From JAYKJB01 sp035284745 [NCBI: Candidatus Sericytochromatia bacterium] (GTDB lineage Bacteria; Cyanobacteriota; Sericytochromatia; S15B-MN24): a DNA stretch of 64,000 bases. The DNA lies in contig JAYKIL010000024.1 of assembly GCA_035284745.1 (NCBI GenBank), forward strand, positions 73,324 through 137,323, given 5' to 3'. Made by a program: the position numbers and the translations under genes. The notes under the pieces are model-generated. The model was not told the origin of the DNA, did not search any database, and was given only the letters and a program-made list of their open reading frames with translations. Below, piece by piece: positions 13,815 through 33,936 of this stretch; the stretch's first letter is position 1; each line of letters starts with the position of its first letter.

Positions 13815-14807
13815 TCAATGTGAGCCAAACACGCGGGCTGCTACCCGCGCGAAAAAGCCGGTCGCCGCTTCACGAGGTGTTTCGCTTTCAATGGGATCAA
13901 TCAACAGGCTCGCCAGCATGTTGATGCGGCGTGTTGAGGGGCCGTAGGGGAACGCGCGAAAAAACGGCTGTTGCTGCAGCACCGAGCGACTGACTTGCGG
14001 ATCTTTTTCGATATGGGTCAGGAAGGAAACATCAATTTCCAAAAACCGATCGACGATCATGATCAGTTTCTGTGCCACGGCCCGCGCTTCTTGCTCTGAC
14101 TCGGCCATGTTAATGATGAGACGGACCTGCGCCAATGGGTTGTGCTGATCGATCGACTTAATCAAGCCATAGGCATCGGTAATCGCGGTTGGCTCGGGGG
14201 TTGTCACCACCAAAACCTCGTGGGCTGCCAAAACAAAGTTCAAGACCCCGCGGCTGATGCCCGCACCCGTGTCTACCAGTATAAAGTCTGCACGGTCCTC
14301 TAAAATGGCCATTTGTCGTATGAAACCATTCAGTTTGTCTTGGTCCAGGTCGGCCAATTCGTGGATGCCGGAGCCCCCGGGCACAATCTGAAGATGGTCA
14401 CTGATGGGCAGTAGAACGTCATCAAGAGACTTGCGCCCCGCAATGACATCTCCCAAGTGAGCCTTGGGTGAGACGCCCAGGATGACATCGACGTTGGCCA
14501 TGCCAAGGTCAGCATCGAACAAAACGGTTCGCTTTTCGCGCTTCGCCAAGGCGAGCGCGAGGTTGACAGTGATGTTGGTTTTTCCCACGCCGCCTTTTCC
14601 GCTGGTGACCACGATGACGCGGGCGGGGGATGTTAACGGCAAAGCAGGGACCGTACTCATCGCAACAGAGGCAATCGTTGGCGTCCCTGTGACTTCCTCG
14701 GTCTCGGCACCCCAACGGATGGACTCTGCCGCATTGTCGACGGCCGCCCCCGCAGCCTTGGGAATATGCCGCATGAGCTCTCGCAGGCGCTTTGCTTGGT
14801 CACTCAT
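13815..14807 (-). CDS. flhG: Flagellar number/placement ATPase FlhG (MinD-like)
   Basis: A 330-residue ParA/MinD-type ATPase that in other bacteria limits flagellar number and acts with FlhF. The deviant Walker A SGKGGVGKTN (~69-78), LFDADLGMANVD (Walker A') and VDTGAGI (Walker B region) are all visible, as is the NMAESEQEA segment common in FlhG/YlxH. The N-terminal ~60 residues begin with a helix DQAKRLRELM, the DQAxxLR-type motif that stimulates the FlhF GTPase. It lies 5 bases downstream of flhF on the same strand and is the last gene of the flagellar run. Confidence 0.92.
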   Translation of the reverse strand: MSDQAKRLRELMRHIPKAAGAAVDNAAESIRWGAETEEVTGTPTIASVAMSTVPALPLTSPARVIVVTSGKGGVGKTNITVNLALALAKREKRTVLFDADLGMANVDVILGVSPKAHLGDVIAGRKSLDDVLLPISDHLQIVPGGSGIHELADLDQDKLNGFIRQMAILEDRADFILVDTGAGISRGVLNFVLAAHEVLVVTTPEPTAITDAYGLIKSIDQHNPLAQVRLIINMAESEQEARAVAQKLIMIVDRFLEIDVSFLTHIEKDPQVSRSVLQQQPFFRAFPYGPSTRRINMLASLLIDPIESETPREAATGFFARVAARVFGSH

Positions 14808-14812
14808 CTCTG

Positions 14813-16288
14813 TTAACTCTTCAACTGAGTGACGAGCATCCGTGCGAGCGTCTCTCCCTCCGCGACGGAGATATCATCGGGCACACTTTGCCCTGTCGTG
14901 ATGTAGGAGACGGGCAAACCGGTTTCGTGGGCGATCGAAATGGCACCCCCTATGATGTCTGTTTCATCTGTTTTTGAGAATATCAAGCGATCCACCCCCG
15001 TGGATGCGAAATGTTTGACAATCTGCTTGAGGTCAGCGAGGCGTGTTGTCGCAGACAAGACCAGATGTGCCTCGACCTGAGGCTCTACGTCTAAAAAGCT
15101 TCGGAGTTCATTGATATGCAGTCGGTTGTAGGGGCTGCGTCCCGCGGTATCGATAAGAATGAGGCCTTTGTCCTGATGTTGTTTCAAGGCCTCTTTTAGG
15201 CTTTGCGGGGTCAACACCACATCCACTGGCAAACCGATGATGTCTCCATAGGTTTTCAATTGTTCGATGGCCGCGACCCGGTAGGTGTCGATGGTGAACA
15301 GGGCCATTTCAGCCTGTCGTGACAGTGCAAAATTAGCGGCCAATTTGGCAATGGTTGTTGTTTTCCCGACGCCCGTGGGGCCCACCAAAGAGACGATCTT
15401 GCGCTCGCCGGGCATCGGGGCGATCGGACCACTTACTTTGAGTAATCCGGCAATCGGGGTTTCAAGAGCATCGCACAGGTCCTCATACACTTTGAGATGA
15501 GGTTGCTCTTTTTGCAGGTATACGACGAGGCCTCTGGCAATGGATGGGTCAACATCCAACGACAAAAGGCGGTCGTAAACTTTTTGCATCAACGTCGGGA
15601 ACTGCGCGACGCTGCGAGGTGCGATCTCAAGCTTGCCAGCCAATGTTGTCATCATCGCCTTGAGGTCTGTCACGGTCGCTTTCAAGTCGGATACCTCATC
15701 CACCAGGCGTTCAGTTTCAGGCATCATCGTCACAACAGGCACCGGAGTGGGGTCCGGTTCTTGGGTTACGACGGGTGGGGCCGCAGGGGGTTCGATGCGC
15801 TGAGCGACACTTTGTACGATCGGTTCAGGGTCAATTTCTGCGACGGCCACGGCGGGTTGAGGCCGCACGGGAGCGGCTTCCAGTTCCGGTGCGGGGCGCG
15901 TGTTTGGGGCCTCGCGGGGGGGAGGAGGCGGGTCCCAACGCTCTGATGCTGGCGCCTCTTCTCGATCCTTGGCACGTTTTCCGAAAGGGCCCAATTCCAG
16001 CGCATCCGAGTCTTTGGGAGAGCCCCAATTGATTGATTTTTCCGGTTCATTGGACCGATCGAACGCGGCGGTCAGGGGGTTCGCATTTCTCCCATTGGAA
16101 GTCGACTTTTCTTTGGCGTCACCGGGGTCGGCGGCGAGCACCTCGACCACGTCTTGGGTAAAAAATCCCATGAAGCCGCCTTTTTTCATCTTGCGACTGT
16201 GGAGAATGACTGCGTTGGGGCCCAAGTCCACTTTGATTTTCAAAATGGCTTCTTGAATGGTTGGCGCCGTATATTGCCGAATCTTCAA
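14813..16288 (-). CDS. flhF: SRP-type GTPase FlhF
   Basis: A 491-residue SRP-family GTPase that sets the site of flagellar assembly. The N-terminus MKIRQYTAPTIQEAILKIK is the FlhF basic (B) domain. A ~130-residue Pro/Glu-rich linker follows, then the N and G domains: P-loop GPTGVGKTTTIAKLA, DTYRVAAIEQLKTYG, LIDTAGRSPYN and a guanine-specificity FSKTDET. The order and spacing match FlhF rather than Ffh or FtsY. It pairs with flhG. A 224-base gap separates it from csrA upstream, so it may have its own promoter, though I could not identify a convincing one. Confidence 0.94.
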   Translation of the reverse strand: MKIRQYTAPTIQEAILKIKVDLGPNAVILHSRKMKKGGFMGFFTQDVVEVLAADPGDAKEKSTSNGRNANPLTAAFDRSNEPEKSINWGSPKDSDALELGPFGKRAKDREEAPASERWDPPPPPREAPNTRPAPELEAAPVRPQPAVAVAEIDPEPIVQSVAQRIEPPAAPPVVTQEPDPTPVPVVTMMPETERLVDEVSDLKATVTDLKAMMTTLAGKLEIAPRSVAQFPTLMQKVYDRLLSLDVDPSIARGLVVYLQKEQPHLKVYEDLCDALETPIAGLLKVSGPIAPMPGERKIVSLVGPTGVGKTTTIAKLAANFALSRQAEMALFTIDTYRVAAIEQLKTYGDIIGLPVDVVLTPQSLKEALKQHQDKGLILIDTAGRSPYNRLHINELRSFLDVEPQVEAHLVLSATTRLADLKQIVKHFASTGVDRLIFSKTDETDIIGGAISIAHETGLPVSYITTGQSVPDDISVAEGETLARMLVTQLKS

Positions 16289-16472: not shown

Positions 16473-16521
16473 GTTCAAAAGGACCGTGTGGGCTTCGCTT
16501 TGAACGGAGCCGTCACGGCTC
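16473..16521 (-). promoter_or_regulatory. Two hairpins at the 3' end of csrA, one with the stop codon in its loop
   Basis: In the csrA transcript the sequence GAGCCG-TGA-CGGCTC (16521 to 16507) is a perfect 6-bp stem whose three-base loop is exactly the csrA stop codon. Right after it, GTTCAAA and TTTGAAC (16505-16499 and 16479-16473) form a second 7-bp stem with a ~19-base loop. No clear U-tract follows, so this is at best a weak terminator. It could stabilise the mRNA 3' end or influence termination of translation. Confidence 0.4.
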
Positions 16522-16761
16522 TTTGCGATTATGTAGCACATTCTTCAAGAGCGAAGAGGCCGCATCCACCGTCGCCGGGTTCTGGGTGGCACGGAGATTC
16601 TCGGCCTTAATGGCCTGATAAATCTCTTGCCTGTACACCTTGACGTCGTTCGGTGCCACGATACCAATTTTGGCGGTGTCGCCCTTGGTTTCAAGCAGGA
16701 TGACCTCAATGTCATCACCGATCATGACGCTTTGATTGATTTTTCTACTCAAGACGAGCAC
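16513..16761 (-). CDS. csrA: Carbon storage regulator / translational repressor CsrA
   Basis: An 82-residue RNA-binding repressor, somewhat longer than the usual 61-75. The N-terminal strand MLVLSRKINQSVMIGDDIEV and the downstream KIGIVAPNDVKVYRQEIYQAI segment, which forms the GGA-binding surface, are both typical. GTG 16761 gives the canonical MLVLSR start and has GGTGA 5 bases before it; an in-frame GTG at 16770 would add three residues with no supporting site. It lies directly after fliW, as in Bacillus, where FliW sequesters CsrA to couple flagellin translation to assembly. The last ~20 residues are a poorly conserved tail. Confidence 0.93.
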   Translation of the reverse strand: MLVLSRKINQSVMIGDDIEVILLETKGDTAKIGIVAPNDVKVYRQEIYQAIKAENLRATQNPATVDAASSLLKNVLHNRKEP

Positions 16762-16809
16762 AGTTTTCACCCAGTCGGCGGCCAGACACTGATATCGTCT
16801 TTTATTTTA

Positions 16810-17265
16810 CTACACTGCCACGGGAGTTTCGCAGACCATCCGGTCAGGGAGCAACCGTTGGCGCGCGGAATAGGAGCTGTCCGCCAGCACCAACTGCTTT
16901 CCGAGGCGTTTTTCTTCATTGATGACCAAGGGGCCAAGCAGGTTAATTGTCATTTCTTGAGGATCATCGGGAATCACGACCACCGAGGCCACAACGGGTA
17001 AGTCGTCTCCGTTGAGTTGCAGAATGCCCCGATCATCGCTCGACAGGTGCGGCGCGTAATCGGGAAAGAACATCCCCGGCTCCACAATCAGCAGAGCAAT
17101 GTCTGGATCGTCTACGCATTGCAGCCAGCGCATCGGGGCTGTTTGATCACTGTCAATAATGATGTATCGCGAAAAACGCTCCAGACCTAATAACCCGAGC
17201 GGAAAATGCAAAATGGTGCTCGGATCGATCTCAAAGGTTCCAAAGCGGGTGGTGGCTAGTTTCAT
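16810..17265 (-). CDS. fliW: Flagellar assembly factor FliW (CsrA antagonist)
   Basis: A 151-residue FliW. Conserved segments: TTRFGTFEIDPSTILHFPLGL, then LQCVDDPDIALLIVEP and INLLGPLVIN. In other bacteria FliW binds either flagellin or CsrA and so senses unassembled flagellin. I place the start at ATG 17265 because AGGAG lies 8 bases upstream and it gives the usual short N-terminus. The adjacent ATG 17268 or the ATG at 17298, which overlaps the flgL stop as ATGA, are possible alternatives. It sits between flgL and csrA. Confidence 0.93.
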   Translation of the reverse strand: MKLATTRFGTFEIDPSTILHFPLGLLGLERFSRYIIIDSDQTAPMRWLQCVDDPDIALLIVEPGMFFPDYAPHLSSDDRGILQLNGDDLPVVASVVVIPDDPQEMTINLLGPLVINEEKRLGKQLVLADSSYSARQRLLPDRMVCETPVAV

Positions 17266-17294
17266 CATCACGACTCCTGTCTCCTTGATGGCCT

Positions 17295-18230
17295 TCATCG
17301 CAGATAATCCACCAGTGAGGTTGGCAGTGTGCGACCGCTCACCGCGAGGGCCGTACGGAATGCCACGTCATATTGCGTAAACTTGAGTGAGGCGGTGGGG
17401 ATATCCGCGGCTTGAATGTCCTCAAGGCGGCCCTCCAACGTCATCTTTTGGTCTATTAAGCGCGTGGAACGTTCCTGAAGAGACTGCAAGCTGCTGGCGA
17501 CAGAGCCTCGGACGGCCACCAAGTTCTTGATGTTGTCGTTTAGATTTTTCAGCGCCAATTGGGGGACAGACAGCAAAGAGCCGCTGGATGGATCGCGAGA
17601 ATCGCTGTTGCCCGCCTCGAGATAGGCCGCAAAGTTATCAATGACAGCAAAGATGTCTTCCCGTGGCTCCGCCATCGTGTCACCGAATACCTCCACGCCG
17701 TTGACGCTGGCCTTGACGGTTTCTCCCCGCGCAATCTCCAGGGTGAGGGTTCCCGCGCCTTGCGTGCCGAGCGTGAGGTCTTCCGCCGGATAGGGGGGTT
17801 CACCCGAGGTTTTGGCGCCATTGAATAGGTAGCGCCCCTGCCCATCTTGCGCGTTGGCCACTTGGCGGGCGGCCTCTCGCAACGAGCGCATTTCCAGCAC
17901 GAGTTGCTGTCTCGTCTCTTGCGTCAATGCGCCGCTGGCAGCTTGAGTGAAGCGGTCTTGAAGCCGTAACAGAATATCTTGCTGGTTGCTGAGCGCCGCA
18001 TCCGTATCCCGAAGGAAGGTTTCGGCAGAATTCACGTTGTCTAGGTACGTGGCGTTTTCCGAAACCTGACGCACCAGCAACTGAATTTGAGCCGCTGTCG
18101 CCGGGTCGTCGGAAGTGCGGTGAATCCGCTTGCCCGTGGAAATATCTCGCTGCACGTCTGCCAGCGCTTGGCGGTTCTTGTTGATGTCCCGCAGCGTTCG
18201 CTCAAAAATCATATTGTTGCTGATTCGCAT
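17295..18230 (-). CDS. flgL: Flagellar hook-filament junction protein FlgL (HAP3)
   Basis: A 311-residue member of the flagellin superfamily that joins hook and filament with FlgK. The N-terminus MRISNNMIFERTLRDINKN, the GKRIHRTSDDPATA segment and the C-terminal coiled-coil helices (LIDQKMTLEGRLEDIQAADI) match FlgL. Length is normal. It follows flgK after 20 bases. No flagellin gene (fliC) is present in the window, so the filament subunit is encoded elsewhere. Confidence 0.93.
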   Translation of the reverse strand: MRISNNMIFERTLRDINKNRQALADVQRDISTGKRIHRTSDDPATAAQIQLLVRQVSENATYLDNVNSAETFLRDTDAALSNQQDILLRLQDRFTQAASGALTQETRQQLVLEMRSLREAARQVANAQDGQGRYLFNGAKTSGEPPYPAEDLTLGTQGAGTLTLEIARGETVKASVNGVEVFGDTMAEPREDIFAVIDNFAAYLEAGNSDSRDPSSGSLLSVPQLALKNLNDNIKNLVAVRGSVASSLQSLQERSTRLIDQKMTLEGRLEDIQAADIPTASLKFTQYDVAFRTALAVSGRTLPTSLVDYLR

Positions 18231-18250: not shown

Positions 18251-19741
18251 TTACCGCTTGATGCTGAGCAGAATGTCCAACATTTCATCGATGGTTGAAA
18301 TCATTCGCGCCGATGCCGCGTATGCTTTTTGGTATCGGATCACATTGGCCATTTCTTCATCCGTCGACACCGACGAAACCATGTCCCGGCGTTCTTTGAC
18401 TGCGGCCAGCAGCGTTTCTTGGGTTTTGGCTGCTCGGGTTGCAGATTGTGTGGAGAAGGACACGCTGAGAACTGCTGCTTGCCAGTGCTCTTCAAATGTT
18501 TTGTTGGGAATCGGGGCTCCCAGCACTTTGGCAAAACGCCTGCCGGCAATCAGCCGGGCCTGCTCGTTGTCGCTTTGGCCGCTGGACGGTGCGCTGGGTT
18601 CTTGCGAAGCGGTTGCGATCGACAAATAGCCATAGCGGAACTCACCCGCGATTTGGTCGAATGAGTCCAGCAGCGCGGGGTTGAGGGTGATGTTGGAGGC
18701 CGCACTCTCCCCCGGAAAACTCTCAAAAGCGCTGACCCTAACAAAGAATGGTGTTCCGGAGGAACCATCCAGGCCGAAGCCAGATTCGTGCAAAGTGTTG
18801 GTGTCCCGCAGAAGGGTGTCTGCCAGCTCGTCCAACTCGCGCAAGAGGCCTTTGGCCTGTCCGGCCGCTGTGGGGGCCTGGCCTGAGAGCGTCACATTTC
18901 GGAGGTCTAACAGCGCTTTTAAGGCTCCCCCCTGAATGTCTGCTTTTTCACCGTTGTTTTCGAACGTGATGCGTGCGATATCGGTGGTCGATTCTACCAG
19001 GGTCGGTGAGAGCGGATAACTATTTCGGTCTGCCACGATAGGCTGTCCGCCCACATACAGGTTGACGGCACCGCTAGAGGCCACAGGCACCACTTGCACT
19101 TTGATCATTCGGGACAACTGTTCGATGATGAGGTCGCGTTGATCCTGCAAATCATTGGGGTTTTGCCCCTGCACCAGGGTGGCGATAATTTGCCGGTTAA
19201 GCTCCCCAATCTGTTCCGTTTTTGTGTTGATGTCCGCCACCATCTCATTGGCCCGCGCGTCCAACTCGGAGCGGTAGGTTTCAATATCCCGGCTCAAACG
19301 GTTGAACGTCTGCGCCAAATTGACCGCCGCCTCGCGAAGGGCCAAGCGGAACCCTGTATTTTCCGGGTTTGTGCTGACCTTGTTCCAACTCTCATAATAG
19401 ACAGCAAATCGGCTAGACAAAGAGCCCTCGCCGGGTTCGCCCAACAGTTCTTCGATTTGGCCCAGTGAGGCGGCGCGCGTTTCCATTTCTCCCAGCGTGG
19501 CGGCCTCCTGGCGCAACTGTCTGTCGAGCAGTTCGTCTCTCACTCGCATCACGCCGTCCAGTTTGATGCCAGTGCCAAGATTTCCGACCGCCGCGACCCC
19601 TAAAGGCACACTCGTGGACGTCGCTGTCCGCTGACGGGAAAACCCTTCAGATTCCGCGTTGGCGATGTTGTGGCTGGCTACATCAACGGCTCGTTGAGCG
19701 GCGAGCAGGCCAGATACGGAGGCGTATAGCCCGATATTCAT
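18251..19741 (-). CDS. flgK: Flagellar hook-associated protein FlgK (HAP1)
   Basis: A 496-residue hook-filament junction protein. The N-terminal rod/hook signature GLLAAQRAVDVASHNIANAESEGFSRQR and C-terminal helix NVIRYQKAYAASARMISTIDEMLDILL are both intact. The NDLQDQRDLIIEQLS segment is characteristic of FlgK. It is exported by the flagellar type III apparatus, with FlgN (encoded just upstream) as its expected chaperone. The spacing to flgN is 16 bases. Confidence 0.94.
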   Translation of the reverse strand: MNIGLYASVSGLLAAQRAVDVASHNIANAESEGFSRQRTATSTSVPLGVAAVGNLGTGIKLDGVMRVRDELLDRQLRQEAATLGEMETRAASLGQIEELLGEPGEGSLSSRFAVYYESWNKVSTNPENTGFRLALREAAVNLAQTFNRLSRDIETYRSELDARANEMVADINTKTEQIGELNRQIIATLVQGQNPNDLQDQRDLIIEQLSRMIKVQVVPVASSGAVNLYVGGQPIVADRNSYPLSPTLVESTTDIARITFENNGEKADIQGGALKALLDLRNVTLSGQAPTAAGQAKGLLRELDELADTLLRDTNTLHESGFGLDGSSGTPFFVRVSAFESFPGESAASNITLNPALLDSFDQIAGEFRYGYLSIATASQEPSAPSSGQSDNEQARLIAGRRFAKVLGAPIPNKTFEEHWQAAVLSVSFSTQSATRAAKTQETLLAAVKERRDMVSSVSTDEEMANVIRYQKAYAASARMISTIDEMLDILLSIKR

Positions 19742-19757
19742 GAATGACCTCCCGTTC

Positions 19758-20255
19758 TTAGGCGGTTCGATTCACCATCCAGGTTTGGGCCTGGTGCCGG
19801 TGGCCTTCGTCTGCGTAGCTTGAAGGGGCTTGCGCACTGGACAGTTCCGCGAATGCGTCCAAGGTGGCGTCGACCACCACTTTGGCGCGCAAAATGAGGC
19901 CCTGAGCAATGGCGTTGCGGTCTTTGATCGCGTCGGCGAGACTTTGCATCTCTGCCATCTTTTTTTCCAGCTTTGAACGGGTCATCGCGGGGGCCGCTGC
20001 CACTATCCTGCCGAAGCTGGCATCTGGTTCCAAGGCCAGCTCCTTTTTCAGGAGGGCTTCCAAAACGTTTCGCTCAGCCTCAAGCTGTCGCATCGTTTTC
20101 ACGTGGGCCTCTTCGCGCGAATTCAGCGCTTCAAGGTCCTGAGGATTGGGACGGTTGAGCAGCTCGACTTTGCGCGGAAGCCAGTTCTTTAGGGCTGTAA
20201 GCCCCGCAACTTGCTGCCCCAGCACAAAATCGAGCCGGTCGTAACTTGCACTCAC
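19758..20255 (-). CDS. flgN: Flagellar export chaperone FlgN
   Basis: A 165-residue, almost entirely helical, charged protein. It has the FlgN pattern: an N-terminal helix followed by a long helix with LNSREEAHVKTMRQLEAER, then SKLEKKMAEMQSLADAIKDRN. FlgN keeps FlgK and FlgL export-competent. Sequence conservation in this family is weak, so the position between flgM and flgK carries much of the assignment. GTG start; 9 bases after flgM. Confidence 0.85.
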   Translation of the reverse strand: MSASYDRLDFVLGQQVAGLTALKNWLPRKVELLNRPNPQDLEALNSREEAHVKTMRQLEAERNVLEALLKKELALEPDASFGRIVAAAPAMTRSKLEKKMAEMQSLADAIKDRNAIAQGLILRAKVVVDATLDAFAELSSAQAPSSYADEGHRHQAQTWMVNRTA

Positions 20256-20264
20256 TGGAATTTC

Positions 20265-20564
20265 CTAGATGAGTTGATCTGCAGCGCGCTTGAGCATACT
20301 CTCGGCAATTTCCCGACCCGAAACCTGATAGGTTCCCGATTGGATCTGCGCTTTGAGGGCCGCCACGCGATCAGCTCGAACATCCGGAAGTCCGGCGAGC
20401 GCCTGCAACGCCTTGCCAATTTCTTGCCCTTGGGAGGACACAGAAACGGCATCCGATGCAGGTGTACTGGTTGGACTCGGGCCAGCAGAACCCTTGACCG
20501 CCTTCGGGCCTTTAACGCCTTGGGCTCCTAGAATCTGCTGAACCTGCTCATTGGAGATACGCAC
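20265..20564 (-). CDS. flgM: Anti-sigma-28 factor FlgM
   Basis: A 99-residue inhibitor of the flagellar sigma factor. The N-terminus MRISNEQVQQIL and the C-terminal helices (VRADRVAALKAQIQSGTYQVSGREIAESML) match the FlgM sigma-binding region. The start is set by an exceptional ribosome-binding site: GAGGTGATC, nine bases complementary to the 16S 3' end, lies just before GTG 20564. An in-frame GTG at 20573 overlaps that site and is therefore rejected. FlgM is secreted once the hook is complete, so it may be translated strongly here. Confidence 0.9.
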   Translation of the reverse strand: MRISNEQVQQILGAQGVKGPKAVKGSAGPSPTSTPASDAVSVSSQGQEIGKALQALAGLPDVRADRVAALKAQIQSGTYQVSGREIAESMLKRAADQLI

Positions 20565-20596
20565 GCTGATCACCTCTTTCCCGCGTGTGAGTTTCG

Positions 20597-20655: not shown

Positions 20656-21087
20656 TTAGGAACTTGAGTCCCATTTTCGTTTTTCTTCTCGATTGAGGGG
20701 ACCCCGTACCGGATGGATCCGCTTATCGCTAGGATTCATCAGCGATCGGACAGAGTCTGTGACGCTTTCACTGAACGTTTGGGCGCAGGTTGGGCACATC
20801 GTCCCTCGGGTGATGCGCACGTCGCAGCGGCGGCAGCGGGGCTGATCATCGGCGTGTAAATTTTCAAGTAACGTCAAGCGACCCTCCCGTATTAGCCGGG
20901 AGATGATTCTTTCCTCGACCTCGGTGGCTTCTGCGACCTCGCGCAAGGTAGCCCCTGGGTGGTCACTTAACCAGTTTGCGACCTTGGTATAGGCGGCGTC
21001 CTCTGCCGTTTGACACGCGGCGCAGATCTTGTTTTCCGGGGACTTGCGAAAGATATGGTGACAACGGGGGCAGTTCGCAAAACTCAT
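20656..21087 (-). CDS. YvyF-like zinc-ribbon/HTH flagellar operon protein
   Basis: A 143-residue protein of the small family found next to flgM in Firmicutes-type flagellar operons (YvyF/TIGR03826). The N-terminal half has two Cys pairs (CPRC at ~6-9, CAAC at ~22-25), then a helix-turn-helix-like segment ATLREVAEATEVEERIISRLIREGRL. Another two pairs follow (CRRC at ~85-88, CPTC at ~98-101). A regulatory role is assumed for the family, but its function is not established. The start MSFANCPRCHHIF is typical. It lies between the rod-binding protein gene and flgM. Confidence 0.8.
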   Translation of the reverse strand: MSFANCPRCHHIFRKSPENKICAACQTAEDAAYTKVANWLSDHPGATLREVAEATEVEERIISRLIREGRLTLLENLHADDQPRCRRCDVRITRGTMCPTCAQTFSESVTDSVRSLMNPSDKRIHPVRGPLNREEKRKWDSSS

Positions 21088-21125: not shown

Positions 21126-21443
21126 TTAGGTCCGAAGTGCAAGTTGTTGGTATATCGCGTCGGCCAATCCCAGACCTCCGTGTTGAGACAGCGATTTCGC
21201 TCTTTCCTCACTGAGCATTTCTTTCCAGGTCTTGTTCGCGGCACCCCCGCCGAGAAGATCCGTCCCTTGTGACGCTTGCATTTGTTTAAAAACCAGACCC
21301 AGCATCACCCCTTCAAATTCTTTCGCTGTCTTCCACAGTTTTTTCTGCTCGGGCGTCTTGGGCGGATCCATTTTTTTAACCGAGCGTAACGTGACAGGCC
21401 GGCCCACCCCTTGGGACAACTCGTTAAGTCTAGATTCGAGCAC
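21126..21443 (-). CDS. flgJ: Flagellar rod-binding protein (FlgJ N-terminal domain only)
   Basis: A 105-residue protein corresponding only to the rod-cap domain of FlgJ: KLWKTAKEFEGVMLGLVFKQMQ, then TWKEMLSEERAKSLSQHGGLGLADAIYQQL. The peptidoglycan hydrolase half of proteobacterial FlgJ is missing. A separate lytic transglycosylase gene four genes upstream (23189-23794) probably supplies that activity. GTG start with GAGG 5 bases upstream. It lies 40 bases after flgG. Confidence 0.85.
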   Translation of the reverse strand: MLESRLNELSQGVGRPVTLRSVKKMDPPKTPEQKKLWKTAKEFEGVMLGLVFKQMQASQGTDLLGGGAANKTWKEMLSEERAKSLSQHGGLGLADAIYQQLALRT

Positions 21444-21483: not shown

Positions 21484-22266
21484 TTAGCGGCGCAGGTTAT
21501 TCGCCATGCCAAGCATCTCGTCGGACGTTTGCACCGACTTCGAATTGGCTTCGTAGGCGCGTTGGGCGATGATAAGATTGATCATCTCTTCCACGACCTT
21601 TACATTCGACATTTCAATATAGCCTTGGGCGATGGTGCCCAGTCCCTCAACGTTCGGATTGGCAATCACGGGATCGCCCGATGCCGGGGTTGGCATATAC
21701 AGGTTTCGACCGATGGCTGTCAGGCCCGCTGGGTTGATAAAACGGGCCAGGGAAATTTGGCCGACGGTTGTTATGTTGTTACCAATTTGAACCGTGATGA
21801 TGCCTTCCGACGTCACGGAAGGGTTGGTGGCCCCTTGGGGCACCGTGATTTGCGGAACCAGCATCAAACCTTCGCTGGTCACGATCTGACCGTTGCCATC
21901 TATTTTGAACGAGCCGTCCCGGGTAAATGCCATCTGGCCATCGGGACGTTGAATCTGAAAGAACCCCTCTCCTTCGATGACCCAATCGAAGGGGTTTTCG
22001 GTCTGTTGGAAATCACCCTGAGAGAAAATTCTTGCGGTCGCCGAGTTGTGGACGCCCATCCCTACCTGCGTTCCGACGGGCATTTGTGTCCCCGATTGCA
22101 TCGGGGTTCCCGCTTGGCGCGCCGTCCGGTACATCAAGTCTTTGAATTCGGCCCGGACTTTCTTGAATCCCAGGGTGTTGGCGTTGGCGAGGTTGTTAGA
22201 GGTCACGTCGATGTTGGTTTGCTGGGCTCGCATGCCAGTCGCAGCGGTCCAAAGGGCTCCCATCAT
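21484..22266 (-). CDS. flgG: Flagellar distal rod protein FlgG
   Basis: A 260-residue distal rod protein. The N-terminal rod motif (ALWTAATGMRAQQTNIDVTSNNLANANT) and C-terminal motif (NVKVVEEMINLIIAQRAYEANSKSVQTSDEML) are intact, with the hook-basal body core VIEGEGFFQIQRPDG. The N-terminal sequence, including the TxATGMxAQQ segment, marks it as FlgG rather than FlgF. ATG 22266 has AAGGA 10 bases before it. A 142-base gap separates it from flgF and contains a candidate sigma-28 promoter. Confidence 0.93.
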   Translation of the reverse strand: MMGALWTAATGMRAQQTNIDVTSNNLANANTLGFKKVRAEFKDLMYRTARQAGTPMQSGTQMPVGTQVGMGVHNSATARIFSQGDFQQTENPFDWVIEGEGFFQIQRPDGQMAFTRDGSFKIDGNGQIVTSEGLMLVPQITVPQGATNPSVTSEGIITVQIGNNITTVGQISLARFINPAGLTAIGRNLYMPTPASGDPVIANPNVEGLGTIAQGYIEMSNVKVVEEMINLIIAQRAYEANSKSVQTSDEMLGMANNLRR

Positions 22267-22408: not shown

Positions 22409-23185
22409 TTATGCCCGCGCCACTTCATTGACCGCCTTGCCCAAGGTCTCGTCCGCGGCCTGCAGGGCTTTCTGGTTGGCTTCATAGTGGCGAAGGGCTG
22501 CGATCATCTCGACCATCTCCTGCACAGAGTTAACATTGGCCCCTTCGAGCATTCCTTGATGGACTTGCGCGGTGCTGGGGAAGGGGGCAGTCGCTCCTCG
22601 AAACTTGAAGGCGGTGTCTCCGACTTTTTCCAAGTCAGCATCCGGGTTTTCAAAGCGAACAATGGCCAGTTTTTCAATCGGGGTGTTGTTCACAAAAATC
22701 GTGCCGTCTTGTGACACCACGAACTGCCCGGCCGATGGCACTTGAATCGGGCCCCCTTGACCCTGAACGAGTCGCCCGCGCTTATCAATGAGAAACCCTT
22801 CACCGTTCCGGGCGAAGTCGCCGGCGCGTGTGTAAAGATTCTCTCCATTCGCATCCACCAGGGTAAAAAAACCGTCTCCTTCAATAGCGAAGTCGAGCGG
22901 GTTGCTTGTTTCCTGCATCATTCCTGCATCGAAGCGTTTTGATAGGGTATTGACCAGAACCCCCGTGCTCAGTTCTCCGATGGGGACGCGCCGCGTCGGG
23001 GCGAGGGGATCACCTGACACAGGATCGTTGGTTCGCCGAATCGCCACCTTTTCACGGGCTTCCAAGATCGCCAGGTCGCGCTTGAATCCGCTGGTGTTCA
23101 TATTGGCAAGGTTGTTGGCAATGGCATCTTGCCTAATTTGTTCTGCCTGCATTCCGGCAGATGCTGTATAGAGGCCCCGAATCAT
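22409..23185 (-). CDS. flgF: Flagellar basal-body rod protein FlgF (FlgG-like)
   Basis: A 258-residue paralogue of FlgG that forms part of the rod. N-terminal MIRGLYTASAGMQAEQIRQDAIANNLANMNTSGFKRD, central FAIEGDGFFTLVD and C-terminal NVNSVQEMVEMIAALRHYEANQKALQAADETLGKAVNEVA are diagnostic. Organisms with this gene order may label the pair FlhO/FlhP. It follows the transglycosylase gene by 3 bases. Confidence 0.9.
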   Translation of the reverse strand: MIRGLYTASAGMQAEQIRQDAIANNLANMNTSGFKRDLAILEAREKVAIRRTNDPVSGDPLAPTRRVPIGELSTGVLVNTLSKRFDAGMMQETSNPLDFAIEGDGFFTLVDANGENLYTRAGDFARNGEGFLIDKRGRLVQGQGGPIQVPSAGQFVVSQDGTIFVNNTPIEKLAIVRFENPDADLEKVGDTAFKFRGATAPFPSTAQVHQGMLEGANVNSVQEMVEMIAALRHYEANQKALQAADETLGKAVNEVARA

Positions 23186-23188
23186 ACG

Positions 23189-23794
23189 TTACTCCTCGCT
23201 GAATTGGTTGTAGAGTTTCATCACGCGATTCACGTAGTTTTGCGTTTCTCTGTAGGGCGGTACGCCCCCGAAATGCGATACGGTTCCCGGGCCCGCGTTG
23301 TAAGCCGCCAAACCCTTCTCCAAACCGAATCTCTGGGTCAGTGTCGCGAGATATTTTGTTCCACCCTCGATATTCTCTTTGGGGTCGTAGGCATTGCCCA
23401 CCCCCAAGGAGCGGGCCGTCGCGGGCATCAATTGCATCAATCCCATCGCGCCCGCAGGGCTCGTTGCCTGGGGATTGCCACCTGATTCCGTGGAGACGAC
23501 AGCCCGCACCAAGGCCGGATCCACGCCGTGGCGCGCTGCGGCCTGCTGTATCACCTCTCGATAGGCGCCGCTGCCACCCGTCTTGGCCGACGAGGGCCCT
23601 AAACTGGCCGAACGAATGGGCTCGCTGGGGTGGTCTGGGGTTGAGGCATGCCCCAATTTCATCCGCGCGGCGTTCAAATTTTCTTGAAAGGCTGCGGGCG
23701 TTTTGGCCTTTATCCCGATCCGATTTTCAATGGAGGCAATGCGGCTTTGGATGCGGTCGATAGATGCCAGTGCTGCGCTGATACCAGGTTTCAC
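23189..23794 (-). CDS. Lytic transglycosylase (SLT domain) linked to flagellar rod assembly
   Basis: A 201-residue protein with a C-terminal Slt70-type catalytic domain: ALVRAVVSTESGGNPQATSPAGAMGLMQLMP (catalytic Glu in STESGG), then AYNAGPGTV and NYVNRVM. The N-terminal ~90 residues are a helical arm. GTG 23794 is chosen because GGGAGGATT lies 7 bases upstream; upstream in-frame starts lack a site. With this start there is no signal peptide, so export through the flagellar apparatus or another route is implied. It probably opens the cell wall for the rod, replacing the missing FlgJ hydrolase half. Confidence 0.82.
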   Translation of the reverse strand: MKPGISAALASIDRIQSRIASIENRIGIKAKTPAAFQENLNAARMKLGHASTPDHPSEPIRSASLGPSSAKTGGSGAYREVIQQAAARHGVDPALVRAVVSTESGGNPQATSPAGAMGLMQLMPATARSLGVGNAYDPKENIEGGTKYLATLTQRFGLEKGLAAYNAGPGTVSHFGGVPPYRETQNYVNRVMKLYNQFSEE

Positions 23795-23934
23795 ACTCAA
23801 TCCTCCCGGCTGGGTTGACTCTTCCAGCATGCCCACGATGCTGGGGCCCCGCCGTGATCCCCATCAGACATAATCCCCTTTTAGGTATCGATGCCCGTGG
23901 CACAAAGCTTGAGCGTATCGGTTTTTAACGAGTG

Positions 23935-25503
23935 CTACGCGCGCGGAGCCTTCTTATCGCCAATCAGGCGATTCAAAACTTCTCTTCTGCGGCTCATTGA
24001 GTTTTCTGAAGCGTTCGATTTCAGGGTGCTGCCCGAGTCCGCAAGGGTGCCCGACGCGGGCGCTGGCGTAATCTCAGGCAATGGCTGCGATGCTGATTCC
24101 CGCACGCTGGTGGCCTGTTCTGTCGGGGGCGCAGCCATGGGGCCTCCCCCGCCGCGCATTTGTGACATCTGCAGCATTAACTCGCGCATCTGAGATTTCA
24201 ATTCGTCCATTTCGTTACTCTGGGCGCGTGTTTCCGACAGTCTGTCGCGGAATTGATTCCGGTCACGACGCATTTCATCGATTTGTCGCCGCAATTCGAT
24301 CAACTCCGCCGCAGCTTCTTCGAGGTCCAAATTCGCCTTGACCTTTGCTTCTCGCAGATTACTGATTTGAAGCGTCGCCTCTCTGTGTTCATCCGTCAGG
24401 CGTTTGATCTCGAGTTCAAATTCGGTTTTCTCGCGTGCGCTCAGACCGCTGGGCTCATCTACAAGCTGTTGTATGCGCGCCTGAAGCGCCTGTTTTTCGA
24501 CGGCCGCCTGTTCCATTTGGGCTTTGTAAGCCAGCACGCGATCCTCGAGTTCCGCCAACACCCGTGCCTGGGGACCTCCGCCGGCCAATTGTCCCTGGAG
24601 TGCCTCTACCTCGCCCTGTAGCTTGGTCACCTGGTGGCGCAGTTCTTGCTTGTCTTGCTGAAATTGTTCGAGTTCTTCTTCTGCTTTGTTGGCCCGTTCC
24701 TCTGCGATCGCCAGTTCGGCTTGCGTGGTGGCGTATGCATCGGACACTTGATTGCGTTCTTTCGAGACGGATTCCACTTTCTCGCGCAATTCGTCGAGTT
24801 CATCAATCACGGGGGCCAAACGAGACGAAACCCCATCACGCTCCACTTCAGCCTGGCGGCGGGCTTGCAATGCCGTCTCCAGTTGACCTTTTACTTCCGC
24901 CAGATCCTGTTTCAAAGAATCGATTTCAGTCTGCTTGCGCGCAACGTCACCTTTCACGCCTTCTGCCGACAGCAGTTGGCCGAGAAGTTCCTGCACCCGA
25001 TCATTCAGTTGCTGGTTTTCAAAGCCTAGTTTTTCGACCTCTGCCAGTGCCTTGGCGTGATCTTCTGGACTGGCCGAGCCCGCGTGGCCTTCCCGGAGTT
25101 CTGAAATTTCGTGCCGCAGCGAAGACACAAGCGCTTCTTGCACGGAAAGCTTGCTCTGTAATTGCAGTTTTTCTGCCCGTAAGTTGGCGAGGGCATCCTG
25201 GGTGTCCAACAATTGCTGCTGGGCCACGTTGAGATCGGCTTCCAGTTGGGTCAAAAGGTTGGTGTCAGTGCTTGGGCCCGCGTTGCGAAGTTCGCTCATC
25301 GAGCGCTCTATTTCAGCAATGGTCGCCTTTTGCTCTTCAATTTTGGCTTTATAAAGCCTGTTCTCATTCTTGAGATTGTTATATTTGCCTTCAATCGACT
25401 TGAGCACCTGTTTCAATTGCTCAGCGGTGATAGGGTTTTGCTCGTCTTCGCCTGTTTTGGGGCCGAGCAGTTTGCCCAGTTGGGATTGCAACTGCTCAAA
25501 CAC
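23935..25503 (-). CDS. Long coiled-coil protein, candidate cytoskeletal partner
   Basis: A 522-residue protein. Residues 1-50 form a head with a signature shared with its upstream neighbour (LLGPK, then ITAEQLKQVLKSIEGKYNNLKNEN). About residues 45-435 are almost continuous heptad coiled coil rich in Glu, Gln, Leu and Lys. The tail has a Met/Gly/Pro stretch (MSQMRGGGGPMAAPP), a Ser/Thr-rich linker and a basic end (MSRRREVLNRLIGDKK). No membrane segment or signal is present, so it is probably cytosolic. It overlaps the small paralogue by 8 bases and is third in the operon led by the actin-like gene. A general SMC-like or Spc-like identification is not supported because there is no ATPase head. 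Confidence 0.8.
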   Translation of the reverse strand: MFEQLQSQLGKLLGPKTGEDEQNPITAEQLKQVLKSIEGKYNNLKNENRLYKAKIEEQKATIAEIERSMSELRNAGPSTDTNLLTQLEADLNVAQQQLLDTQDALANLRAEKLQLQSKLSVQEALVSSLRHEISELREGHAGSASPEDHAKALAEVEKLGFENQQLNDRVQELLGQLLSAEGVKGDVARKQTEIDSLKQDLAEVKGQLETALQARRQAEVERDGVSSRLAPVIDELDELREKVESVSKERNQVSDAYATTQAELAIAEERANKAEEELEQFQQDKQELRHQVTKLQGEVEALQGQLAGGGPQARVLAELEDRVLAYKAQMEQAAVEKQALQARIQQLVDEPSGLSAREKTEFELEIKRLTDEHREATLQISNLREAKVKANLDLEEAAAELIELRRQIDEMRRDRNQFRDRLSETRAQSNEMDELKSQMRELMLQMSQMRGGGGPMAAPPTEQATSVRESASQPLPEITPAPASGTLADSGSTLKSNASENSMSRRREVLNRLIGDKKAPRA

Positions 25504-25798
25504 AGGTTTCGTCCTCCGGTTCTTCCGACAGTGTGGGGGCGGGGACCTGCTCCAAAGCGAGCTCTAGTCGTTCAAGCTCTCCTTGTTGCCGGTTGATGGT
25601 ATCAAGCAGTTGCACTTTTTCAAGACGATGCTCTTCCAGTCGATCGACCAGTCTTGCGTTTTCATCTTTGAGTGCAGCGTACTTCTCCTCGATGGATTTC
25701 AACACGATGCCCAGTTGGTTCGCTGTGATCGCGCCCATAGGATCTTCATCCTTTGGGCCGAACAGCTTGGCTGCTAGGGCCTTCAGGAAATCCGCCAC
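25496..25798 (-). CDS. Short coiled-coil protein sharing the head motif of the long one
   Basis: A 100-residue protein whose first half (MADFLKALAAKLFGPK, then ITANQLGIVLKSIEEKYAALKDEN) is clearly paralogous to the head of the downstream 522-residue protein. It continues as a coiled coil with LERLELALEQV and ends in an acidic tail. It starts 3 bases after the actin-like stop (GTG start, GGGGGAT upstream) and overlaps the next gene by 8 bases, so all three are probably co-translated. It may be a capping or length-control version of the long protein, or may compete for the same binding site. Confidence 0.8.
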   Translation of the reverse strand: MADFLKALAAKLFGPKDEDPMGAITANQLGIVLKSIEEKYAALKDENARLVDRLEEHRLEKVQLLDTINRQQGELERLELALEQVPAPTLSEEPEDETCV

Positions 25799-25801
25799 GG
25801 A

Positions 25802-27058
25802 TTATCCCCCTTCGCGGAGCGGGGTTGCGATCGCGTATTCGAAGAAGCCCTTCACGTTGTAATAGCGAGGATCCTGAGCCAATTGAAGGTCACGGAAATA
25901 CGGATACTTCGTGAGCAGAGGGTAGAGAATGCGACCAAAACCACCCACCAACAACATGCGGTGGATTCTTAGATCGCGCCAGCTTTGCCGCACGGTCAGC
26001 GCGATTTGCTGTGCCATAATTTCTTTCAAGCTTTCGACCAGATGCTCCGGAACCGTGAGTGTATCACCCTGGTTATCCTTGTAGACACCTGTTACGAGGC
26101 TTTCTTGGACCGCAATGGGGTTGATGCGTGGCACCATCTGCTCACTGAGAAATGAGGCCACTTCTTCATACAAACGGTGACCTGCCACGGCCGTTGTGTG
26201 GCCAGAGTACTTGGTTAATTCATTCGGGAGACGCACCACCACCCAGTCTGTTGTCAGGTGGCCAGGATCGATGACACCGATCGTTTCTTCCGGATTGTAA
26301 TCGAGTTGACCCGCCAAAATGGCAGCATACACCGAACCCACCGGCTGCGGAATCGTATCGATTTGAATAATTTCGATGGTGACGTTCTCCCCGCAGAAAG
26401 TGAATTCGTGGCGCCCGAGCCACTCGCGCAAGGACGAATCGATGTATTCGGGGCGACGGCCCAGGTAAACGGGCAGGCCCAGACAAATTTTATAGCGAGG
26501 AATACTGGTCTGCCCGGTACGGCGCGCCAGCAAAGCCAATGATGCCAGAACCAACGCCTTGTTCAGCTCTCCTTGAAAAATATTTTCGTCGTTGACCGGG
26601 AACAAGAAGGGCTGCTCCATCGCGTAACGGCCGATGCTGTATTCGTGACCGTCAATCTTGACCCACAAATTCTGTTCCAAGTTCTCGTCCAGCAGTTGGG
26701 CACTGCCGCGCCGAATGGTTGCGACCGGTCCACCCACCAGTGTGGGGAATATAAACAGATGCTCTCCGTCGTAAATGCGGGTTTCTGAGCGTCCCAGGTC
26801 GAGGCCGACGTTGATGACCTCCGTGCGACTGCCCCGTGAAGCTCCATACGCTGAATCCAACCCCACCGTCCGACTGACGACCGGACGCGGCGTTTCGGCA
26901 CGCACCGGTTCTTCAGGCAACGAAGCTGCCACAGGCGGTGGCGGAGGCGCCTGAACAGGCGCGGGCACATCTCGCTTCACCAAAAACACCCGGCCGGCCA
27001 TTCGAGCAGGTAGAACGTAAGTGAGGCGAACCATTTGTGGGGCGTTTTCGGTGGTCAT
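25802..27058 (-). CDS. Actin-like ATPase of the ParM/Alp type
   Basis: A 418-residue actin-superfamily protein. The phosphate-1 loop VGLDLGRSETRIYD is at ~84-97, phosphate-2 GVIDPGHLTTDWVVV at ~261-275 and the adenosine loop LLVGGFGRIL at ~369-378. NVKGFFEYA near the end matches the NVxGF/NVxGY segment of ParM/StbA proteins. The ~80-residue N-terminal extension, with a Pro-rich core (~30-60), is unusual and likely disordered. ATG 27058 has GAGG 4 bases upstream; upstream in-frame starts lie in the leader. It is first in a three-gene operon with two coiled-coil proteins and has its own near-consensus promoter. It is not MreB, FtsA or PilM by motif spacing. Plasmid partition is unlikely, as no parR or parC-like repeats are visible. 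Confidence 0.85.
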   Translation of the reverse strand: MTTENAPQMVRLTYVLPARMAGRVFLVKRDVPAPVQAPPPPPVAASLPEEPVRAETPRPVVSRTVGLDSAYGASRGSRTEVINVGLDLGRSETRIYDGEHLFIFPTLVGGPVATIRRGSAQLLDENLEQNLWVKIDGHEYSIGRYAMEQPFLFPVNDENIFQGELNKALVLASLALLARRTGQTSIPRYKICLGLPVYLGRRPEYIDSSLREWLGRHEFTFCGENVTIEIIQIDTIPQPVGSVYAAILAGQLDYNPEETIGVIDPGHLTTDWVVVRLPNELTKYSGHTTAVAGHRLYEEVASFLSEQMVPRINPIAVQESLVTGVYKDNQGDTLTVPEHLVESLKEIMAQQIALTVRQSWRDLRIHRMLLVGGFGRILYPLLTKYPYFRDLQLAQDPRYYNVKGFFEYAIATPLREGG

Positions 27059-27123
27059 GAATCCTCGTCCCGAGCAAGGAGGGCTGGCACACCCCATCAG
27101 TGGGTGCCCAATAACAGCCTCAA

Positions 27124-27152
27124 ACTATAGTATGCAGACGAAAGCGTGTCAA
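27124..27152 (-). promoter_or_regulatory. Near-consensus sigma70 promoter of the actin-like operon
   Basis: On the minus strand TTGACA (27152-27147), a 17-base spacer and TATAGT (27129-27124) give 11 of 12 consensus bases at the ideal spacing. Transcription would start near 27117 and give a ~60-nt leader containing a GGCAC/GTGCC-based hairpin (27087-27109). This is the strongest-looking promoter in the window and implies constitutive, high expression. Confidence 0.8.
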
Positions 27153-27166
27153 ACGGCGCTCCATCC

Positions 27167-29971: not shown

Positions 29972-29993
29972 TGAGAAGCCTCCTTGCTCAGGC

Positions 29994-31544: not shown

Positions 31545-32647
31545 TAGAAGTTGCGTCTCAATCCAAAATAGCCGGTCAATGTCGCGAGTGGTTTCGTGGG
31601 GTCATACCCCAGGCCCCTCCGTCGTCCGTTGCCGGTTTGGCTCTGGCGAAGTCCCGCGGTATTTTGGATCACCAGCACGCTGGGCTCACGGGCAAATACG
31701 CGGACCGTCACGGTGACGACCCACAACGGCACATCCATCACCATCGTTCCATCTCCTGCCGCGCCATTCACCTCTCGCCTCAAGCTCGCCAAGCCAGGGG
31801 CTCCTGCTCCTCCCGCCCCATAGGTGGCCAGCGGCGGCTCGGGGTAATTGCGATCGGCGACGAAACCGCCGGCTACGTTGCCAAAGGGCTGCCCCAAGGG
31901 GCTGTTCGTTTGAACCCAGACTTCTCGGACAAACTTAATGGTTCGCGGCAGTTCACCCGCGCCTTCCGAGCCATCGGTGAGACCCGTCAGGCCGCGAAAG
32001 CGTTCGTTAGCCATGGGGGCGGGAATGAAGGCCACTTGAGGCGCGGCGGGTTCACCGCCGGGGGGAGAGTTCACGAAGATGGGCCGGGGTTCGACCAGTC
32101 GAGCCCCCGCAGTGTTGTTGAACCAGTCGGGGTAAACCCCGGCCACCGTGGCCGTCTGTGTACCCGTTCCTGGAATGCTTTTTGGCATGGGCGGGATGGC
32201 ATTGATCGGCAAGTCGGCCGCGGGGGCGCCAGCACTTGTTTGCGCGAATTTTCGGTCCAAGGCGTTGGTCGGGTTGGCGTTATTCAGCACACTGCGAGCG
32301 GTCGGCTCTGTCGTCCCGTAGAGCCACTCGCGAACGAGCAAGACGGGGCGGTCGTTCCATACGTTGTGAAATCCCTGCCACCAGTCGATGCTGTTGTAAT
32401 CTCGGTGCGTTCTGGGATTTTCAGGCGCGGGATAATAGGTTCCGCCGACGGCAATATACGGATTGGGGCACGAACGGAAATACGCCAACCGCTCAGAGGC
32501 CAAATTGGCCGCTTGCAGGGTTAAATCACTGTTTTTCGAGGTGCGCAAAACCGCAAAGGCGCCGCTCATCACGCCCACCAGTGCTACCACCAAAACGGAG
32601 GAAGCCACCACGACCTCAAGAACCGTGAAGCCTTTTTTTGCCGCCAA
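31544..32647 (-). CDS. PilV-like large minor pilin
   Basis: A 367-residue protein with a very short prepilin leader MAAKKG cut before FTVLEVVVASSVLVVALVG (Glu +5), then the helix LTLQAANLASERLAYFRSC. The LASxxLAYFR segment recalls PilV. It starts at TTG 32647, with GGGGG about 6 bases upstream; no ATG or GTG is better placed. It is first in the operon and has a candidate promoter ~30-50 bases upstream. Confidence 0.75.
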   Translation of the reverse strand: MAAKKGFTVLEVVVASSVLVVALVGVMSGAFAVLRTSKNSDLTLQAANLASERLAYFRSCPNPYIAVGGTYYPAPENPRTHRDYNSIDWWQGFHNVWNDRPVLLVREWLYGTTEPTARSVLNNANPTNALDRKFAQTSAGAPAADLPINAIPPMPKSIPGTGTQTATVAGVYPDWFNNTAGARLVEPRPIFVNSPPGGEPAAPQVAFIPAPMANERFRGLTGLTDGSEGAGELPRTIKFVREVWVQTNSPLGQPFGNVAGGFVADRNYPEPPLATYGAGGAGAPGLASLRREVNGAAGDGTMVMDVPLWVVTVTVRVFAREPSVLVIQNTAGLRQSQTGNGRRRGLGYDPTKPLATLTGYFGLRRNF

Positions 32648-33765: not shown

Positions 33766-33936
33766 CGTGTCGTCTGAGCCTCGTTATCCCCACCCTCTGC
33801 TTACCCGTTGAAGATACACGAGTAACCGGTCCCCTTGCTTTTCGCAACGTTCGGTCATTGCTTTCGTGTTTCGGGAGCGATTATGATGGTAAAAAGAGAG
33901 GGTCAATCCGCTGTCAATGACGAGAGGGAGGGAGCC

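What the first reader, a model, noticed from the sequence alone, without database searches (positions are those of the whole stretch)
25496..27152. Candidate actin-like cytoskeletal module next to the flagellar operon
A ParM/Alp-type actin-like ATPase with a Pro-rich N-terminal extension, a 100-residue and a 522-residue coiled-coil protein form a coupled operon (gaps of 3 and -8 bases) with a near-consensus promoter. The genes sit directly upstream of, and in the same direction as, the flagellar genes, and next to two pilus gene blocks. No ParR or centromere-like repeats are seen, so plasmid segregation is unlikely. A filament with dedicated coiled-coil partners that organises motility machinery would be a plausible and possibly undescribed role. 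Motifs and layout are seen; the role is inferred.
Basis: partly seen in the sequence, partly recalled or inferred. Interest (0 to 1): 0.8.

Follow-up and report, generated by a model that had tools for sequence, protein, structure and literature searches.

The report
ParM-like actin heading a flagellar operon
Some flagellated, cyanobacteria-related bacteria carry an actin-like filament gene, paired with a coiled-coil partner, mostly at the head of their flagellar gene cluster, which suggests that a plasmid-partition type actin was taken over to help build or place flagella.

Summary
On the minus strand a ParM-type actin-like gene (ALP, 25802-27058), a 100-aa and a 522-aa coiled-coil gene (CC) form a tight operon behind a TTGACA-17-TATAGT promoter, followed by a lytic transglycosylase (SLT) and flgF-flgG ... 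flhF-flhG. The best profile and structure-sequence matches are ParM-type proteins (ParM, CorM, FcmB, PRTRC_D), not MreB, FtsA, PilM or MamK. In a class of 18 genomes, 9 have the ALP, and only these 9 have a CC with its signature N-terminus, directly downstream. With the window, flagellar genes follow in 8 of 10 (one across a contig break), while upstream neighbours differ between subclades. The small coiled-coil gene and the Pro-rich ALP extension occur in 3 of 10. Against a strict flagellar role: two genomes have the pair away from flagellar genes, and six ALP-less genomes have flagellin-domain matches. It is neither ParMR (no ParR family match, no parC-like repeats) nor FcmBC (37 bits against a 300-bit cut-off; CC profile unlike FcmC); all 9 genomes also have MreB. 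Best reading, inferred: a chromosomal ParM-type filament, joined to membrane or basal body by the CC, that helps place flagella or open peptidoglycan for them.

The parts
27124..27152 (-). sigma-70-like promoter TTGACA-17-TATAGT
   Evidence: same hexamers in L001 and L017, not in the other 7 loci
25802..27058 (-). ALP: ParM-type actin-like ATPase, 418 aa
   Evidence: nucleotide-site segments DLGRSE, DPGHLTTD, GGFG, kept with some substitutions in the orthologues, most in G003 and G005
26831..27058 (-). N-terminal extension of the ALP: short conserved segment plus Pro-rich linker, about residues 1-76; only in the window, G001 and G002
25496..25798 (-). small coiled-coil protein, 100 aa, apparent duplicate of the CC N-terminus
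   Evidence: predicted helix 2-13, linker, helix 26-83, mean pLDDT 79.9
23935..25503 (-). CC: 522-aa coiled-coil partner
25324..25503 (-). signature N-terminus of the CC: short hydrophobic helix, then ITxxQLxxVLKSIExKYNxLxxEN
23938..23997 (-). conserved short C-terminal tail of the CC after a Pro-rich linker (RREVLNRLIGDKK here; DPARKLDWLLGV-like in other lineages)
23189..23836 (-). SLT: lytic transglycosylase; best NCBIfam match BB0259 flagellar assembly lytic transglycosylase (E=6.8e-25, 87.9 bits against a cut-off of 234)
22409..23185 (-). FlgF
21484..22266 (-). FlgG
21126..21443 (-). FlgJ, N-terminal (rod-cap) part only, 105 aa
   Evidence: matches model positions up to about 110; all below cut-off
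20656..21087 (-). YvyF-like flagellar-region protein
   Evidence: 91 bits against a cut-off of 124
20265..20573 (-). FlgM
19758..20255 (-). FlgN
18251..19741 (-). FlgK
17295..18230 (-). FlgL
16810..17298 (-). FliW
16513..16770 (-). CsrA
14813..16288 (-). FlhF (SRP54-type GTPase domain; the name FlhF is by domain and position)
13815..14807 (-). FlhG-like MinD/ParA-type ATPase (the name FlhG is by position and recalled features)

Best explanation
A chromosomal ParM-type actin-like filament system serving flagellum biogenesis. Shown: an ALP with conserved nucleotide-site motifs, followed in all 10 loci by a dedicated coiled-coil protein in close succession, and in 8 of 10 heading a run of flagellar genes (lytic transglycosylase, rod, hook-associated, FlhF/FlhG). 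Inferred: the ALP polymerises on ATP; the CC binds it through its conserved C-terminal tail (as, by recall, the tail of ParR binds ParM) and reaches the membrane or basal body through its N-terminal helix; the filament then helps place flagella, or focuses the lytic transglycosylase so that the rod can cross the peptidoglycan. In one subclade the CC N-terminus was duplicated as a stand-alone small protein and the ALP has a flexible N-terminal arm.
For: ALP type. Pairing: a CC with the signature N-terminus in the 9 ALP-bearing genomes and none of the 9 others of the class; ALP and next gene 0 to 6 bases apart or overlapping. Flagellar linkage in 8 of 10 loci, G009 by two contigs that each hold a part of the CC; the window's upstream genes are not found in the 5 other loci with usable upstream sequence (G009 was not given to that call). 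SLT next to the CC in 8 of 10 loci; its best model is the Borrelia flagellar LT, which is needed for the hook to pass the peptidoglycan and interacts with a single-domain FlgJ (PMC8517470, abstract); FlgJ here is also short. ALP identity co-varies with FlgG and FlgF identity (Mantel r 0.72 and 0.84, permutation p 0.0014 and 0.0008; 8 and 7 taxa, G001 and G003 not included). All 9 ALP-bearing genomes have strong Flagellin_N matches and a strong MreB match. In 4 ALP-less genomes (G011-G014) flgF-flgG have no match to ALP, CC or SLT beside them; in G015 the contig begins 424 bases before flgF.
Against: G001 has ALP, small CC and CC with no SLT or flagellar match in the 619 bases left on the contig, and SLT-FlgF and other flagellar genes on another contig; G003 has ALP-CC-SLT but then genes without flagellar matches. 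Six of 9 ALP-less genomes have Flagellin_N matches (one, G017, is weak and may be FlgL), so the system is dispensable for flagella and does not separate flagellated from other genomes (9 of 9 against 6 of 9). The 9 genomes may be one clade, so presence or absence may be one event. In Salmonella the MreB/MreC cytoskeleton was reported dispensable for flagellar assembly, though not for expression (PMC3266929, abstract). No polymerisation, binding or localisation data; the ALP model failed (mean pLDDT 35). The amphipathic reading of the CC N-terminus is weak: shuffles of its own residues reach the moment in 1 to 32% of cases. The catalytic-loop residue is Gln in 6 and Arg in 4 of 10 ALPs, where CorM and FcmB have Glu, so ATP turnover may be slow or lost in some. 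G007 has no SLT at the locus.
Confidence: 0.5

Rival explanations
1. A cell-shape actin, like FcmBC/CorMR of filamentous cyanobacteria: ParM-derived filaments at the membrane that set cell width, with the flagellar position a matter of co-regulation only.
For: Characterised chromosomal relatives in the same phylum are FcmB/CorM. FcmB needs FcmC for membrane localisation (PMC12645912: abstract, first part of Results and Discussion read). FcmC also ends in a conserved short tail after a variable, Pro-containing stretch. G001 and G003 have the pair away from flagellar genes.
Against: ALP scores 37 bits against the FcmB cut-off of 300 and the CC has no NCBIfam FcmC match; CC and FcmC profiles do not match (probability 5.7%). 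The six FcmBC-type loci viewed have no match to the window's flagellar structural genes, the ALP-CC pair has them in 8 of 10. MreB is present in all 9 genomes, though FcmB also coexists with MreB (PMC12645912).
Confidence: 0.22
2. Type II (ParM) partition of a replicon or chromosome region, with the CC as an unusual ParR.
For: Best sequence matches are plasmid and phage partition actins.
Against: No ParR family match next to the gene and no parC-like repeats in 23700-27700; the CC is a long coiled coil; 45 plasmid records match, all below 60% identity, the 15 listed at 23-30%; no relative confirmed among viral contigs; the locus lies about 7 kb from genes I read as rplU, rpmA and obgE, and the ALP co-diverges with flagellar genes.
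Confidence: 0.06
3. A scaffold for the neighbouring pilin-like/secretion genes rather than for flagella.
For: Pilin-like block directly upstream and on the same strand in the window and G001, with a fragment in G002; G001 kept this link and lacks the flagellar one.
Against: The 5 other loci with usable upstream sequence show no match to the window's upstream ORFs.
Confidence: 0.08
4. Passenger: the pair does an unrelated housekeeping job and shares the operon only for expression timing.
For: Own sigma-70-like promoter in one subclade; exceptions G001 and G003; flagellated genomes of the class without it.
Against: Linkage is kept across ALP identities down to 40% while the upstream side changes.
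Confidence: 0.14

Closest known systems
Plasmid/phage ParM (pCBH ParM 6ixw/6izr, NCBIfam PRK13917, phrog_691) and chromosomal Dh-cParM1 (8x1i)
   Same: Actin-like ATPase of the ALP_N/ParM type over nearly the full core
   Different: No ParR match or parC-like repeats; partner is a long coiled-coil protein; flagella-linked; below the NCBIfam ParM cut-off (49.8 against 417 bits)
FcmB-FcmC of filamentous cyanobacteria (PMC12645912) and CorM (PDB 9rmi)
   Same: Same phylum, chromosomal, ParM-like, two-gene unit; by eye a partner with a helical middle and a conserved short tail
   Different: 24% identity in the profile alignment; partner not alike by hhalign; no flagellar structural genes in the 6 loci viewed. 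That CorM and FcmB are much the same family is recalled, not tested
PRTRC system protein D (TIGR03739)
   Same: ParM-like domain, E=3e-12
   Different: 46.1 against a 214.8-bit cut-off; the rest of the PRTRC gene set was not looked for
BeeR of Verrucomicrobiota (PMC11929497)
   Same: Actin homologue with a disordered N-terminal extension (first of two parts of the text read)
   Different: MamK-related there; here ParM-type, and the extension is in 3 of 10 loci only

Membership tests
ParM superfamily of bacterial actin-like proteins | Full-length profile match with actin nucleotide-site motifs | tested here: met
   ALP_N over its cut-off, 9 of 10 members match; profile hits pCBH ParM E=2e-16; segments
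ParM superfamily of bacterial actin-like proteins | ATP-dependent polymerisation | not testable with these tools
   needs purified protein; structure model uninformative
ParMRC plasmid partition | Downstream ParR-type DNA-binding adaptor | tested here: not met
   downstream genes are coiled-coil proteins with no ParR family match in Pfam or NCBIfam
ParMRC plasmid partition | parC-like direct repeats next to the genes | tested here: not met
   (repeats without gaps, 23700-27700; tandem arrays 23000-28000)
FcmB/FcmC | NCBIfam FcmB and FcmC equivalog models over cut-off | tested here: not met
   FcmB 37.2 against 300 bits, no FcmC match; of 3 FcmBC-type loci tested all 3 FcmB and 2 of 3 FcmC pass, the third FcmC at 82.9 against 90
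MreB, FtsA, PilM, MamK | Best profile or structure-sequence match to that family | tested here: not met
   ALP_N, a sub-threshold archaeal MreB-like_C, ParMs and CorM; MreB is a separate gene in the 9 genomes and PilM a separate gene in the window
Flagellar-operon component | Conserved position with flagellar genes across divergent genomes | tested here: met
   8 of 10 loci, one across a contig break; exceptions G001, G003
Flagellar-operon component | Present in all flagellated genomes of the class | tested here: not met
   6 of 9 ALP-less genomes have Flagellin_N matches
Flagellar-operon component | Needed for flagellar assembly, number or position | not testable with these tools
   no genetics available

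The most novel reading that the evidence does not exclude
A partition-type actin that was captured from a plasmid or phage and turned into an organelle-placing machine: a polymerising ParM-type filament, tethered by a purpose-built coiled-coil adaptor instead of ParR, that places or shares out flagellar basal bodies and directs the peptidoglycan opening for them, as MamK does for magnetosomes.
Probability: 0.3. Interest if true: 0.85.

Novelty: new variant of a known kind. Interest (0 to 1): 0.6.

Why it matters
Bacterial actins are known for plasmid partition, division, magnetosomes and cell shape (PMC12645912, abstract). A ParM-type actin kept with flagellar genes across divergent genomes would be a further case, after FcmB, of a partition actin taken over for cell organisation, and the first ParM-type actin in a flagellar operon that I found. 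Eight literature searches, over open-licence PMC papers and seen as capped listings, showed none; an indirect link of MreB/MreC to flagellar gene expression is in print (PMC3266929, abstract). It gives a concrete two-gene target for testing whether actin filaments help place flagella or open the wall for them.

Tried and rejected
Considered and rejected: MreB replacement (all 9 ALP-bearing genomes have MreB); plasmid-borne locus; likeness of CC to FcmC by profile; the small coiled-coil protein as a disguised ParR (it shares the CC N-terminus); pilin linkage as the general rule.

Led nowhere: the viral scan matched 43 stretches, none confirmed. The AlphaFold model of the ALP from two sequences was poor, so no fold search was run. 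Conserved promoters outside one subclade: none by consensus matching. Literature searches for CorM/CorR listed no paper on that protein. The CC profile against solved structures gave coiled-coil proteins of many kinds. Reach: one scan of genome contigs, which finds close relatives only, gave one genome; 386 genomes of the phylum were drawn from a larger group; other phyla were not searched at depth, so restriction to this class is not shown. The control genomes apply to the family searches only. Flagellar loci of ALP-less G016-G018 were not viewed; that of G010 is cut just before flgG.

Corrected on the way: alignment A1 held one wrong-frame and one over-long row and was replaced by A2. G009 was left out, the CC part, since its CC is split between contigs; G001 and G003 were left out of the co-divergence test, and G004 of its FlgF part.
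Full report
What is there. The three genes read as described, on the minus strand: ALP 25802-27058 (418 aa), a 100-aa gene 25496-25798 and a 522-aa gene 23935-25503, with gaps of +3 and -8, behind a TTGACA-17-TATAGT promoter. Downstream follow a lytic transglycosylase (98 bases on) and FlgF, FlgG, a short FlgJ, a YvyF-like protein, FlgM, FlgN, FlgK, FlgL, FliW, CsrA, an SRP54-type GTPase read as FlhF and a MinD/ParA-type protein read as FlhG.

What the ATPase is. Pfam gives ALP_N over its cut-off and a sub-threshold archaeal MreB-like C-terminal match. phmmer finds two pCBH ParM sequences, CorM and Dh-cParM1, plus two chance ribosomal rows near E=1. A profile of ten orthologues finds only these four at E<=0.01. 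NCBIfam scores ParM 49.8, PRTRC_D 46.1 and FcmB 37.2 bits, all far below the cut-offs of 417, 214.8 and 300; PHROGs gives a partition protein at 5e-31. The nucleotide-site segments are kept across the ten, with substitutions mainly in G003 and G005, and the catalytic-loop residue is Gln in 6 and Arg in 4 (that this position is catalytic is recalled from ParM). It is therefore ParM-type, apart from the named families tested.

Who has it. One scan of genome contigs returned one relative, the MAG 'Cyanobacteria bacterium RYN_339' (75%), which NCBI places in unclassified Cyanobacteriota. Nine of 18 have the ALP, E at most 1.4e-70. In 386 genomes of the phylum, drawn from a larger group, the profile finds the same 9 strongly and 8 others weakly, best E=5e-11. 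Six weak single-sequence hits among 59 genomes were viewed with flanks. Three of their ALP proteins were tested and pass the FcmB model; of three downstream proteins two pass the FcmC model and one falls just short. None of the six loci matched the window's flagellar structural genes at E<=1e-4; one had a weak match to the MinD-like protein.

The partner. The 9 ALP-bearing genomes, and none of the other 9, have a coiled-coil protein with the signature N-terminus; the four matches in other genomes start at profile position 43 or later and are generic coiled coil. The layout is constant: short N-terminal helix, ITxxQLxxVLKSIExKYNxLxxEN, coiled coil of very different length (251 to 668 aa in all), Pro-rich linker, short conserved tail (the split CC of G009 shows the same start and tail). 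The 100-aa protein repeats the N-terminal part and is found in the window, G001 and G002, the same three with the N-terminal arm on the ALP. FcmC also ends in a conserved tail, DPVIxRLSSLLDDF; this is an analogy only, since the profiles do not match. The model of the 100-aa protein shows helix 2-13 and helix 26-83.

The neighbourhood. Of 10 loci (window plus 9), ALP and CC are neighbours in 10, with the small gene between them in 3. Flagellar genes follow in 8: window, G002, G004, G005, G006, G007, G008 and G009, where the CC is cut by a contig end and its tail lies at the start of another contig before SLT-FlgF-FlgG. SLT lies next to the CC in 8 of 10; G007 has none at that place. G001 has no SLT or flagellar match in the 619 bases that its contig holds after the CC, and its SLT-FlgF and FlgK to FlhG-like genes are on another contig. 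G003 has ALP-CC-SLT and then genes without flagellar matches. One search compared 9 of the 10 loci. Upstream they fall into three largely separate sets (window/G001 with a fragment in G002; G004/G007; G005/G006/G008) with a few shared ORFs between the last two; G003 had too little upstream sequence. Downstream, the loci with sequence share many ORFs except G003, which shares two or fewer with any other, and G001, which shares none in its 619 bases. ALP divergence follows FlgG and FlgF divergence.

Controls. FHIPEP is found in 17 of 18 and Flagellin_N in 15 of 18 genomes of the class: 9 of 9 with ALP and 6 of 9 without (the Flagellin_N domain also picks up FlgL). So the ALP is not required for flagella. 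In ALP-less G011-G014 the flgF-flgG genes have other genes upstream, and in G015 the contig begins just before flgF. SLT-like proteins occur in all 18 genomes; 8 of 9 ALP-bearing genomes have a match at E<=7.4e-37, while ALP-bearing G007 reaches only 2.5e-18 and the best ALP-less genome, G010, 4.4e-29. MreB is present in all 9 ALP-bearing genomes, so this is not a stand-in for MreB.

How it may work. The steady pairing and the flagellar position suggest that the ALP filament and its CC adaptor serve flagellum biogenesis. The SLT is closest to BB0259, which in Borrelia is a peptidoglycan-lytic enzyme needed for the hook to pass the wall and interacts with a single-domain FlgJ (PMC8517470, abstract); FlgJ here is also short (105 aa). 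I therefore favour a filament that positions the basal body or the wall-opening enzyme. None of polymerisation, membrane binding or ALP-CC binding is shown. A caution from elsewhere: in Salmonella the MreB/MreC cytoskeleton was reported dispensable for assembling flagella, though needed for their expression (PMC3266929, abstract).

Literature. FcmBC: abstract, first of two parts of the Results, and the Discussion read; a word search of its text found no mention of Sericytochromatia or flagella. Chromosomal ParMs: abstract and passages; no 'flagell' in the text. BeeR: first of two parts. BB0259 and Salmonella MreC: abstracts and outlines. Eight searches showed no flagella-linked ParM-type actin; the library holds open-licence PMC papers only and most listings were capped (for example 20 of 49, 12 of 201).

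Noticed in passing
class of L001, 18 genomes: Many genomes carry two full-length FHIPEP proteins of clearly different score (about 900 and 800 bits), suggesting FlhA plus a second export gate such as a type III secretion SctV or a second flagellar system.
   Followed up: no
window 63867-64000 (+): The 5' end of a 16S rRNA gene, cut by the window edge.
   Followed up: no
ALP residue 238 (window numbering), alignment A2: The catalytic-loop residue is Gln in 6 and Arg in 4 of 10 orthologues, where CorM and FcmB have Glu; ATP hydrolysis may differ between lineages.
   Followed up: partly
window 27167-32647 (-): Three large proteins (934, 516, 367 aa), prepilin-like by eye, without NCBIfam match (the two tested also without Pfam match), shared with L001 at 30-36% identity.
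   Followed up: partly
window 33835-34239 (+): A SpoVS-domain protein next to genes read as rplU-rpmA-obgE, also present in L001.
   Followed up: no
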